A stretch of 64,000 nt of DNA from Hawksworthiomyces lignivorus. Taxonomy: Eukaryota; Ascomycota; Sordariomycetes; Ophiostomatales; Ophiostomataceae. Shown one piece after another: positions 16,472 through 18,900 of the stretch (position 1 is its first letter; each line of letters opens with the position of its first letter). A model generated the notes under the pieces. It saw nothing but the letters and a program-made list of their open reading frames with translations, was not told the DNA's origin and did not search any database. The stretch spans positions 62,001-126,000 of the forward strand of contig NTMA01000081.1 of the NCBI GenBank assembly GCA_002917075.1. Direction: 5' to 3'. The position numbers were made by a program, and so were the translations under genes.

Positions 16472-16799
16472 TTAGCGCATATTATCCATCTTCTGGAGCA
16501 AGCAAGAAAGATGACAAAGTATGAGGGGAACCACGACGTACTCTTCCTTGACGATGTCGTCTTCGGTGTCCACACCCGGTTCCAACTTAGCCTTCTTGGA
16601 GGGGGTTTCAACTGCATTCAGCTCATCTTCGCCCGAATCGATATTTTCGTTCTTTCTTTTGCCCGAACCCGCCTTGGGGTGAGGTGTGCCTTTGGACCGA
16701 GCATTCTTTGGGGTCTTTTGATTCTTCGGCGTTTTAGGGGTAGTAGGAGTGGACGTAGTGCCATCAGTCGCGTTCCGCCGCAGCTTCTGAAGGTGCTGA
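16472..16799 (-). CDS. Shared 3' exon C of the SANT-like array
   Basis: Acceptor ATGCAG, then QHLQKLRRNATDGTTST and a low-complexity TPKTPKNQKTPK stretch, basic KAGSGKRKN, acidic DSGEDE, SKKAKLEPG, and an end near IVKEEYVVV. The last 45 nt before KMDNMR look like a polypyrimidine acceptor, so a further short intron at the very end is possible; without it the exon stops at 16472. The composition suggests a nuclear protein. Confidence 0.7.
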
Positions 16800-18900
16800 C
16801 TGCATGAAGTTAGCAATATGAACATTTCAGCGAAGTAGAAGAACTATTGGAAGACAGAAAATAGAAGCCATGTGCAATAGAAAAAGCGAAGATGAAAAGA
16901 GAAAAATACACGACCGCCTTCGGCGTATAGGAGTAGCCCATCTCCGCTGTCCGTGCGACAATTTCGCGGATCTGTTCCCCAGAAGGCGCGAGCGTGTAGA
17001 ACATTGCAATCAGCAGATCGCGGTTGGCTTCAGCATCCCACGTTTGTCGGTTGGACATTATGACAGAGCAGTCCACGGTATGAGTGTAGAGTGGATGGAA
17101 ATAAAAGACACAAAGACAGAGGAGAAGAAAACAAATCTGTTTCTGAGAGAATTCTGCGAATAATAGCAAAAAGGGATGTAACAAGTAAACTGGGAGTGCA
17201 AAGTGAATCTAGACAAATAGCAAAGTGAATAAGAGAAAATGGAGTTGGGGCTGGGCCCGTGATTGTTTTGATTCTGTTAGGAGCGCGATATGAAACAAAG
17301 GAGATAAATCAGAAGAGAGTTAGAGAAGGGCGGAAAAACTAAGGGAGGAAGTTTTGCACAATAGAAACAGCACGTAGAAGTGAAAGTCAAGGAAAAGAAA
17401 AACAAATCCAGAATCTTATAGAGATGAGGATTGGCAAGTGAGGGAAATGTACTATAGGCCAAGATGCGTGAACTTGTAGCCGCGCTGGTTCAAGTTCTTG
17501 ACGATGTCTTTCAGAACGTCTGTAGAGGGCATGTTTAAAGCTACAACCCACCCCAAGACGTCCTTGTATACGCCTGGGGCGTCCCAGTCTTGTCGGTGTG
17601 TCCTGGCAGACATAATGGGGAATGTTGTTAAATAAAAGTTGGTATCAAGATGACCAGATCGATGATGGAACGTAGATAGTGTTGTGATGGGATATAAGAG
17701 AAATAGGGAAAATGAGGAACGACAAAGAGGCAGGATGGTTTGGACGAGATGGAGCAAACGAGAGCAAATCAAAAGTAAAAGACAACGGCAGAAATAAAGA
17801 TATACCGAATAGCGTCCCAAGTAATTGTGTGGCCTCTGCTGGCTAGATAGCTGACTATCTGCTGCTTTTGCTCGGTGTCAGGAGGACTGTAATTGAAAAG
17901 CGCCTGCAGAAGGTCGTCTTTCATTGTTCCCTCCCACTTGGACATGTCTGATGATGGATGGATTATATAGTTGGGCAAGAGACAAATGTTTGTTTTTGAA
18001 GAAGAGTAAGGGATGAGCAAACTTGAATTTGAGGTGAGTAAACAATGAAGCGAGATTGTCGATTTTTGCGGCTACGGGGGGGGTAGTAAAAAATAATAGG
18101 GTGTGGGTGACAACAACAGAGGGTGGTATCATGACTTGGAGGTAGATTGGCGAAAAAACAAGAAATGAAATAAAGCAAAACAGAAGAGGACTGCACAAGG
18201 CCAATACCGTATAGCGTTCCAGACCACATCGTAGCCACGGTCTCGCATCTCCTGCAGAATCATTGCCTTCTGCTCTTCACTCAGCTGCGCTGGACCAACC
18301 ACTTTCAACATGGCTAAGAGCAAGTCAAAGGACGCCTCTGCATTCCACGAGACCGGCATGATCAATGGCAGAGGAAAGAGATTCAGAACTGAGCTAAACT
18401 TGAAACTGCAAATATGTAGTGGTGTGGCGTTTTGGCGGTTACACAAATCGTTGATGCGAGGAAATTGGTGTGTAAAATACGACGCCAGCGTAAAATAGAG
18501 AGATACTGGGCACAAAAGTGTGTGAGGGAGAGGAATCAGAAAGAAAATAGACGGGTGAGCGGGCCAGTCATGAGGCAGATAAGGAATATACCGTAAACAA
18601 AAGAGAAGAAAGAAAAGTACCAAAACAATACCGAATCAAGCAACAATGAAGACACTAAAAACCTACCGCACTGCCTCCCATGTGAAGGTTGATTTGCTGG
18701 CTTCGAGTGAAGCCATAATCACACTTGAGTGCTTAGCCAGCGAACCACTGTCAGCGACCAGTGCTTCCATCAAAGCACGGCACAGCTTGATGTGGGCTTC
18801 GTTGTCCCACTAAGATATGTCAACAAGATAGCCGAGTAAGCTGTTTTGCGGAGTCCATACTGCTTACCCTGCTGCTCTTCTCGGTCTCCGTGGGTGCCAT
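16472..18900 (-). CDS. SANT/Myb-like locus: five first exons, one common 3' exon
   Basis: The locus has five ATG-initiated coding exons (V1-V5) and one downstream exon (C). Each V exon encodes the first two helices of a SANT/Myb-like domain, opening on a conserved Trp (WDNEA, WNAEA, WEGTM, WDAPG, WDAEA) and ending just before a Gln-His. All five stop at a GT donor in phase 2. Exon C starts in the matching phase and reads QHLQKLRR, the expected third helix, then a Thr/Pro/Lys-rich tail. No other QHLQ-type exon follows V1-V4. Each V exon is preceded by CT-rich, stop-containing sequence that looks like a leader or promoter, so alternative first exons are the simplest reading. V5-C is a normal two-exon gene of 159 residues (intron 16800-16909). 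V1-C would need a 1.9-kb intron. Splicing is inferred. Confidence 0.6.
16910..17058 (-). CDS. Variable first exon V5 (proximal)
   Basis: MSNRQTWDAEANRDLLIAMF, then EMGYSYTPKAV. It ends in phase 2 at GTATTT and is 110 nt from exon C, a normal fungal intron size. The join reads KAVVQHLQKLRR, so this exon is the default first exon. Confidence 0.75.
17453..17613 (-). CDS. Variable first exon V4
   Basis: MSARTHRQDWDAPGVYKDVL, then a second helix ending NQRGYKFTHLGL plus two bases of a Tyr codon. It ends in phase 2 at GTACAT. Read without splicing it would stop at once (TAG), so the frame is only useful if the exon is spliced onward. Confidence 0.55.
17806..17945 (-). CDS. Variable first exon V3
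   Basis: MSKWEGTMKDDLLQALFNYS, then a second helix ending ASRGHTITWDAIR. It ends in phase 2 at GTATAT. No acceptor in a usable phase lies just upstream, so it is best read as a first exon. Confidence 0.6.
18208..18359 (-). CDS. Variable first exon V2
   Basis: MPVSWNAEASFDLLLAMLKV then a helix ending MRDRGYDVVWNAIR. It ends in phase 2 at GTATTG. A cryptic in-frame acceptor (TTTGCAG) lies 64 nt upstream of the ATG, but the sequence after it has no domain character. Confidence 0.6.
18667..18900 (-). CDS. Variable first exon V1 (two pieces)
   Basis: ATG at 18900. MAPTETEKSSR (18900-18868), intron with GTAAGC donor and CTTAG acceptor, then WDNEAHIKLCRALMEAL through FTWEAVR (18809-18667). It ends at GTAGGT in phase 2. 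It differs from V2-V5 in having an extra intron before the Trp. Confidence 0.6.

What the first reader, a model, noticed from the sequence alone, without database searches (positions are those of the whole stretch)
16472..18900. Five phase-matched SANT/Myb half-domain first exons in front of one shared exon
Each of five separate ATG-started exons encodes helices 1-2 of a SANT/Myb-like domain. Each ends at a GT donor in phase 2, and one acceptor with the matching phase supplies helix 3 (QHLQKLRR) and the tail. Five of five intact frames and donors, each with its own CT-rich leader, argue for use rather than decay. This would let one fungal locus make five DNA-binding-domain variants with a constant tail by promoter choice. 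Such an arrangement is not one I know in fungi.
Basis: partly seen in the sequence, partly recalled or inferred. Interest (0 to 1): 0.88.

Follow-up and report, generated by a model that had tools for sequence, protein, structure and literature searches.

The report
Fungal gene with five interchangeable starts
A fungal gene carries five alternative opening segments, each most of a small DNA-binding-type domain, in front of one shared ending, and related fungi keep the same array; this would let one fungal gene make several such proteins by choosing where to start, a design known best from vertebrates, though no RNA from this fungus has tested it.

Summary
On the minus strand five exons (V1-V5, 18900-16910) each encode most of a three-helix Myb/SANT-like domain, end at a GT donor in phase 2, and fit one acceptor at 16799 with a CTAAC branch site. 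Corrections: V1 needs its own 58-nt intron; the shared part has a further exon (16457-16415); the junction lies inside helix 3; only V2-V5 have CT-rich leaders.

The array is old and kept. In Niveomyces insectorum two consecutive locus tags hold orthologues of all five V exons in the same order, then the shared tail. Each V class recurs in other genera, four (perhaps five) in other orders. Gene models elsewhere join each of the five classes directly to the shared exon; three Pyricularia oryzae models have identical tails and different V parts. Two ORFs without organism name look already spliced. Chaining all five V exons in frame lacks acceptors here.

Best reading: a fungal multiple-variable-first-exon gene, probably chosen by promoter, giving five domain variants on one tail. 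RNA, promoters, DNA binding and splicing of the 0.65-1.87 kb introns are untested.

The parts
18868..18900 (-). V1 first part: ATG and 11 codons (MAPTETEKSSR), followed by a 58-nt intron 18867-18810 (GTAAGC...TTAG); inferred
   Evidence: N-terminus resembles the V1-class proteins P0005 and P0061; no CTRAY branch in the intron
18667..18809 (-). V1 second part (WDNEAH...WEAVR), phase-2 donor GTAGGT; 1867 nt to the shared acceptor
18208..18359 (-). V2 first exon (MPVSWNAEA...WNAIR), phase-2 donor GTATTG; 1408 nt to the shared acceptor
17806..17945 (-). V3 first exon (MSKWEGTMK...WDAIR), phase-2 donor GTATAT; 1006 nt to the shared acceptor
17453..17613 (-). V4 first exon (MSARTHRQDWDAPG...THLGL), phase-2 donor GTACAT; 653 nt to the shared acceptor
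16910..17058 (-). V5 first exon (MSNRQTWDAEAN...TPKAVV), phase-2 donor GTATTT; 110-nt intron to the shared acceptor
16800..16813 (-). 3' splice site of the shared exon: CTAAC branch-like site (16813-16809), its A 10 nt from the AG
16542..16799 (-). Shared exon: rest of helix 3 (QHLQKLRR) and a charged low-complexity tail
16458..16541 (-). Intron 2 (GTACGT...CTAAT...TAG)
16415..16457 (-).
20714..20865 (-). Exon 1 of the neighbouring upstream paralogue (MNKNWNDRADKDL...NEGCR), same phase-2 split; one first exon only
19471..20440 (-). Exon 2 of that paralogue (QHFQGLRRAQNK... with a PGPGRGRPRK stretch, AT-hook-like by recall), acceptor CTAG ending at 20441

Best explanation
This is one gene with a tandem array of five variable first exons and a constant 3' part, in the manner of the vertebrate UGT1 and protocadherin clusters. 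Each V exon is probably transcribed from its own start upstream. Its ATG opens the frame, and its phase-2 donor is spliced to the single acceptor at 16799. V exons lying further down are skipped as part of the intron, because none has an in-phase 3' splice site with a branch-like sequence. The product is a small protein, probably nuclear: V gives helices 1-2 and the first turn of helix 3 of a Myb/SANT-like domain, and the shared exons give the rest of helix 3 and the tail. Start choice would therefore select one of five domain variants on a constant tail. Shown here: anatomy, phases, ordered orthology, conservation that stops at the donors, and relatives' gene models joining every V class to the shared exon. 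Inferred: the promoters, the splicing in this fungus, nuclear location, DNA binding, and that the variants bind different sites.
For: Anatomy, 5 of 5 phase-2 donors and one acceptor with a branch site. Ordered one-to-one orthology with Niveomyces insectorum SPI_03050 + SPI_03051: same-place identities 32/59, 30/49, 33/47, 22/46, 32/50 against at most 17/48 elsewhere; best score on the diagonal in 5 of 5. Grosmannia clavigera CMQ_4767 holds V2-, V4- and V5-type parts, then the shared tail; Ophiostoma piceae holds V2- and V3-type, then the shared tail; ORFs without organism name hold V2-leader-V3 and V3-leader-V4. Each class is joined directly to QHLQKL in a gene model: V1 P0061, P0071; V2 P0060; V3 P0007, P0046, P0025; V4 P0036; V5 P0002, P0014, P0018 and others. 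Same tail, different V: three P. oryzae models (tails 95/95, 87/87, 87/87; V parts 16/47, 11/44, 15/44), three Podospora-type proteins (tails 121-122 of 124), Neurospora, Clonostachys and others: 16 of 38 pairs with tails over 80% alike have V parts under 60% alike, of which I discount 3 because translated intron was compared. Of 36 ORFs without organism name, two (P0068, P0076) run V into the shared exon with no intron between. In 13 of 13 read-through V ends among those 36, the next residue is Y or C, as GT in phase 2 requires.
Against: No RNA from this organism. Introns of 653-1867 nt are long for a filamentous ascomycete; Verticillium dahliae averages 100 bp (PMC5294800, passage). 24 of 111 relatives carry two or more half-domains in one protein; two of these are unspliced ORFs (P0006, P0009), the other 22 chain V exons in gene models, and some could be real. 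Three AGs with a branch-like site do lie before V2 (one) and V5 (two, one of them CTAAC), all out of phase, against 1.8 expected from shuffles; they could let those V exons be included out of frame. No motif common to the five leaders was found, V1's leader is not CT-rich, and V1's small intron shows no CTRAY branch. The relatives' models are automated predictions (methods not seen). That P0068 and P0076 are assembled cDNA is my inference.
Confidence: 0.8

Rival explanations
1. The V exons are consecutive exons of one protein with tandem Myb-like repeats, as the chained gene models of relatives suggest.
For: 22 gene models among the 111 relatives hold two or more half-domains in one protein, e.g. 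P0001, P0005, P0008, P0011, P0019. In the window in-phase AGs do exist before V2 (two) and V3 (one), so V1-V2-V3 could in principle be joined.
Against: No AG at all was found in the examined spacer before V4, the only in-phase AG before V5 is followed by an in-frame stop, and no in-phase AG before any V has a CTRAY branch site. Linkers in the chained models are leader-derived and differ in length and sequence between species (the V2-V3 linkers in P0005, P0007, P0011, P0046). Chained half-domains would lack most of helix 3.
Confidence: 0.07
2. Only V5 makes the protein; V1-V4 are separately transcribed short genes or peptides that stop in the spacer.
For: The V5 intron is of ordinary size (110 nt) while the others are long; V4 meets a stop codon at its donor and V3 twelve codons or so after it.
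Against: Conservation stops at the donor and the read-through tails are unlike between species; models in other genera join V1-, V2-, V3- and V4-class exons to the shared exon; a half-domain lacking most of helix 3 is unlikely to fold (inference).
Confidence: 0.06
3. V1-V4 RNAs are joined to the shared exon by trans-splicing between separate transcripts.
For: Would avoid the 0.65-1.9 kb introns; recalled precedents are mod(mdg4) and lola in Drosophila. No call here supports it directly.
Against: All parts lie in order on one strand within 2.5 kb, so cis-splicing is enough.
Confidence: 0.04
4. V1-V4 are decaying duplicates of exon 1.
For: V1-V4 appear to derive from the same ancestral exon as V5 and the upstream paralogue.
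Against: Open frames, donor phases and 48-70% identity kept in the same order in another genus; each V class recurs in other genera and most in other orders.
Confidence: 0.02

Closest known systems
Multiple-variable-first-exon clusters of vertebrates: UGT1, GCNT2, clustered protocadherins (PMC1885805, passages)
   Same: Tandem, homologous, same-frame first exons; one set of constant 3' exons; orthologous and lineage-specific V exons (gain and loss).
   Different: Fungal; the V exons are 140-176 nt and split a domain inside its third helix; the cluster spans 2.5 kb; own promoters are inferred here but reported for UGT1 and GCNT2.
mod(mdg4) and lola of Drosophila (recalled)
   Same: One locus gives many DNA-binding variants on a constant part.
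   Different: There the variable exons are 3' and the constant part 5', with trans-splicing in mod(mdg4).
Xlr2 of Trichoderma virens, microexon switch (PMC11121469, abstract)
   Same: A fungal regulator whose DNA-binding domain depends on alternative splicing.
   Different: Two isoforms, domain present or absent; no array of alternative domains.
FgTAD2/FgTAD3 alternative promoters in Fusarium graminearum (PMC11087585, passages)
   Same: Alternative transcription starts in a sordariomycete, one of them specific to sexual development.
   Different: The alternative starts shorten the protein or only the 5' UTR; no duplicated first exons.
Upstream paralogue in the window (20865-19471)
   Same: Same half-domain, same phase-2 split, here before QHFQGLRR.
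   Different: A single first exon; a different tail.

Membership tests
Multiple-variable-first-exon gene cluster | Tandem homologous first exons on one strand, each with its own start codon | tested here: met
   (V1's start lies in a small separate exon, inferred)
Multiple-variable-first-exon gene cluster | All V exons in the same splice phase, compatible with one set of constant 3' exons | tested here: met
   5 of 5 phase 2, all open into the shared exons
Multiple-variable-first-exon gene cluster | Downstream V exons lack a usable 3' splice site | tested here: inconclusive
   no in-phase AG with a CTRAY branch before V2-V5; but three AGs with a branch lie out of phase before V2 and V5 (1.8 expected from shuffles over the four spacers)
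Multiple-variable-first-exon gene cluster | V exons kept by selection | tested here: met
Multiple-variable-first-exon gene cluster | Each V exon spliced to the constant exons in mRNA | tested here: inconclusive
   Relatives' gene models and two apparently spliced ORFs; no RNA from this organism
Multiple-variable-first-exon gene cluster | Own promoter for each V exon | tested here: inconclusive
   CT-rich leaders for V2-V5, not V1; no common motif
SANT/Myb-like DNA-binding domain | Three helices | tested here: met
   Predicted models of two relatives, P0002 and P0061: helices 10-24/28-40/47-63 and 20-35/41-54/61-77, pLDDT mostly 85 or more there
SANT/Myb-like DNA-binding domain | Three regularly spaced tryptophans or other aromatics in the core (recalled) | tested here: inconclusive
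   One tryptophan, before helix 1, is invariant in 45 aligned relatives; the other two places were not examined and hold no invariant aromatic
SANT/Myb-like DNA-binding domain | Structural match to solved Myb/trihelix domains | tested here: inconclusive
SANT/Myb-like DNA-binding domain | Profile match above curated cut-off | tested here: inconclusive
   None of the six window proteins passes a Pfam cut-off; the best is HTH_12 for V2, 19.2 bits against 21.4. Among 45 relatives Myb_DNA-bind_8 matches 1 (E 1.5e-5) and HTH_12 matches 2. Best PDB sequence match ARR10-B, E 0.074
SANT/Myb-like DNA-binding domain | Sequence-specific DNA binding | not testable with these tools
   needs a binding assay

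The most novel reading that the evidence does not exclude
A promoter-chosen, class-wide conserved array of alternative first exons in filamentous fungi (Sordariomycetes) that swaps most of a DNA-binding domain, including the start of its third (recognition) helix, on a constant tail: the fungal counterpart of the UGT1/protocadherin design, hidden because annotation chains or drops the V exons.
Probability: 0.65. Interest if true: 0.87.

Novelty: new variant of a known kind. Interest (0 to 1): 0.8.

Why it matters
Diversifying proteins by splicing is described as much rarer in fungi than in animals (PMC3597508, start of abstract), and about 90% of the events reported in two deep-sequenced species were intron retention; the same paper finds over a thousand other events in Verticillium dahliae, with alternative first exons as one of its classes (PMC5294800, passages). 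A conserved array giving five or more domain variants from one gene would stand out, would explain why this locus is annotated differently from species to species and between isolates of one species, and would give a small, genetically tractable model (Neurospora, Podospora) for how one of several first exons is chosen. My paper searches listed no such fungal locus; they cover open-licence PMC papers only, I judged mostly by titles and abstract openings, and several lists were cut (for example 15 of 15,822, 15 of 6,676, 15 of 58, 10 of 13).

Tried and rejected
Decay: disfavoured by ordered orthology. Multi-repeat protein: no usable in-phase acceptors before V4 and V5. Copies elsewhere in the genome: the shared exon (E <= 0.001) and V2, V3, V5 and the upstream paralogue (E <= 1) each matched only their own places, except that V5 matched V3 weakly (E 0.39). 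These searches mostly failed to find even the sibling V exons, so they exclude close copies only; V1 and V4 were not searched for. A shared promoter motif: none with exact 8-mers or 9- and 10-mers with one mismatch in 250-nt leaders. Pfam naming: no match above cut-off for the window proteins. Foldseek against PDB with the P0002 model: nothing at E <= 0.001. Locus tags CMQ_4767, F503_08106, SPI_03050, SPI_03051 in papers: 0. A search for the annotation method of the P. oryzae isolates gave nothing useful.

Rows dropped or recounted: two rows are false domain matches on reading the sequences (P0105 scored as spliced, P0094 as intron in frame), so I count 2, not 3, spliced ORFs and 8, not 9, with an intron in frame. 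In one search three of the 16 unlike pairs (P0025/P0069, P0021/P0057, P0037/P0066) compare translated intron and are not counted as evidence. The tree was given 85 half-domains from 55 of the 111 proteins, picked by me, plus 6 window rows; matches under 34 residues (among them the V4-type part of Grosmannia) were left out, and P0030 was lost to a name clash with P0060; by pairwise score P0030 is nearest to V5-class rows. The tree has 54 columns, its bootstrap had not settled, many forks are open, and some placements outside the core are long branches (Cryphonectria in V4, Diaporthe in V3). The protein searches were capped: one search scored only the 7997 candidates sharing most words.

Full report
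What is there. The minus strand of 18900-16415 holds five V exons and a shared 3' part. V1 is 18900-18868 plus 18809-18667; V2 18359-18208; V3 17945-17806; V4 17613-17453; V5 17058-16910. All five end two bases into a codon, before GT. The five predicted proteins have 146-158 aa. Intron lengths to the shared acceptor are 1867, 1408, 1006, 653 and 110 nt. V1's 58-nt internal intron is needed because the TAG of its acceptor closes the frame upstream, but it shows no CTRAY branch, so V1's short first exon is the least sure piece.

More than chance. A profile built from 58 rows of relatives, no window row among them, was run on the 1514 stop-to-stop frames of at least 25 aa in the window. It found the five V exons and exon 1 of the neighbouring gene at E 7e-19 to 9e-6, and nothing else better than 3.1. 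The relatives had been found with window exons, so this tests specificity, not independence. The neighbouring gene (exon 1 20865-20714, exon 2 20440-19471) has the same half-domain and the same phase-2 split before QHFQGLRR, which suggests where the V exons come from: duplication of an ancestral first exon.

Conserved, in order. The three protein searches gave 111 proteins in all. Niveomyces insectorum SPI_03050 holds, in order, orthologues of V1, V2, V3 and V4; the next locus tag, SPI_03051, is V5 plus the shared tail. Same-place identities are 32/59, 30/49, 33/47, 22/46 and 32/50, against at most 17/48 elsewhere, and the same-place score is the best in 5 of 5. Grosmannia clavigera CMQ_4767 holds V2-, V4- and V5-type parts plus the tail. 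Ophiostoma piceae F503_08106 holds V2- and V3-type parts, with V3 running straight into QHLQKLRR. Two ORFs without organism name read V2-leader-V3 and V3-leader-V4 without a break. NCBI places Niveomyces in Hypocreales and Grosmannia (now Leptographium) in Ophiostomatales, but the V exons of Niveomyces group with those of Ophiostomatales.

Classes beyond the neighbours. In a tree of 91 half-domains (85 from 55 of the 111 proteins, picked by me, and 6 of the window; 54 columns, many forks open) V1 groups with Sporothrix, Niveomyces and two Sordariales (96/98); V2 with Ophiostomatales and Magnaporthales (91/88); V3 with these and Sordariales (86/77); V4 with Ophiostomatales and, on a long branch, Cryphonectria (98/82); V5 with Sordariales and Coniochaeta (92/94). 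A further class, absent from the window, is found in Magnaporthales, Sordariales, Xylariales and Diaporthales (99/93). Twenty-four of 111 proteins have two or more half-domains, two of them unspliced ORFs. I looked up the order of one species each: Ophiostomatales, Magnaporthales, Sordariales, Hypocreales (Clonostachys), Diaporthales and Xylariales; the orders of other species named here are recalled, save Niveomyces, Coniochaeta and Podospora.

Joined to the shared exon. Each of the five window classes is joined directly to the shared exon in at least one relative's gene model: V1 Sporothrix thermara P0061 and Thermocarpiscus P0071; V2 Pyricularia oryzae P0060; V3 O. piceae P0007, Magnaporthiopsis poae P0046 and Staphylotrichum P0025 (in these three another V part stands before it); V4 Sporothrix bragantina P0036; V5 Niveomyces P0002, Sporothrix P0014 and P0018, and many Sordariales. 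Three P. oryzae models, named after different isolates, have identical tails (95/95, 87/87, 87/87) but V parts alike in only 16/47, 11/44 and 15/44 places: P0060 carries a V2-class, P0030 by score a V5-class, and P0011 last of four a sixth-class part. Three Podospora-type proteins share 121-122 of 124 tail residues with unlike V parts, and Neurospora and Clonostachys show the same between species. In all, 16 of 38 pairs with tails over 80% alike have V parts under 60% alike, three of them discounted because translated intron was compared. Of 36 ORFs without organism name, two (P0068, P0076) pass from V to shared exon without an intron, eight keep an intron in frame, three hold half-domains only, and the remainder hold the shared exon only or neither; two scored rows, P0105 and P0094, are false domain matches. 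I read P0068 and P0076 as assembled cDNA; that is inference, since the tool does not say how these entries were made.

Conservation stops at the donor. Read-through tails after the V ends differ between species, and in 13 of 13 read-through V ends among those 36 ORFs the next residue is Y (12) or C (1), as a phase-2 GT requires.

Not one chained protein. In the window no AG was found in the examined spacer before V4; the one in-phase AG before V5 is followed by an in-frame stop; the in-phase AGs before V2 (two) and V3 (one) lack a CTRAY branch. Three AGs that do have a branch, one before V2 and two before V5, are out of phase, against 1.8 such sites expected from shuffles; they could still include V2 or V5 out of frame. 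So a transcript starting at V1 offers one in-phase acceptor with a branch, at 16799. This gives the proposed mechanism: the first donor after the cap is joined to that acceptor, and start choice decides the isoform. Against it stand the introns of up to 1.87 kb, long for such fungi (Verticillium dahliae averages 100 bp; PMC5294800, passage), the lack of a motif common to the leaders, and the absence of RNA.

Novelty. The kind, a cluster of multiple variable first exons, is known from vertebrates (PMC1885805, passages). Fungal cases seen here are different: a microexon switch (PMC11121469, abstract) and shortened isoforms by alternative promoters (PMC11087585, passages). Searches for fungal arrays of first exons showed none in the titles and abstract openings listed; two searches found no paper at all, and the lists were cut at 15.

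Noticed in passing
window 20865-19471 (minus): Neighbouring gene with the same half-domain and phase-2 split but one first exon and a different tail; perhaps the ancestral type of gene from which the array grew.
   Followed up: partly
P0011, P0030, P0060 (Pyricularia oryzae isolates): The same gene appears annotated with different first exons on identical tails in different isolates.
   Followed up: partly
P0001, P0005, P0008, P0011, P0019: Automated gene models chain V exons with leader-derived linkers; annotations of this locus are probably wrong in several Sordariomycetes.
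   Followed up: partly
P0010, P0011, P0012, P0013, P0037 and others: A sixth class of first exon, absent from the window, is present in Sordariales, Magnaporthales, Xylariales and Diaporthales: gain or loss of V exons.
   Followed up: partly
P0002, P0005 (Niveomyces insectorum): NCBI puts this species in Hypocreales, but its V exons group with Ophiostomatales.
   Followed up: no
window 17454-17452 (minus): V4 reads into a TAG that overlaps its own donor (TA|GTACAT), so an unspliced V4 message ends at the exon end.
   Followed up: no
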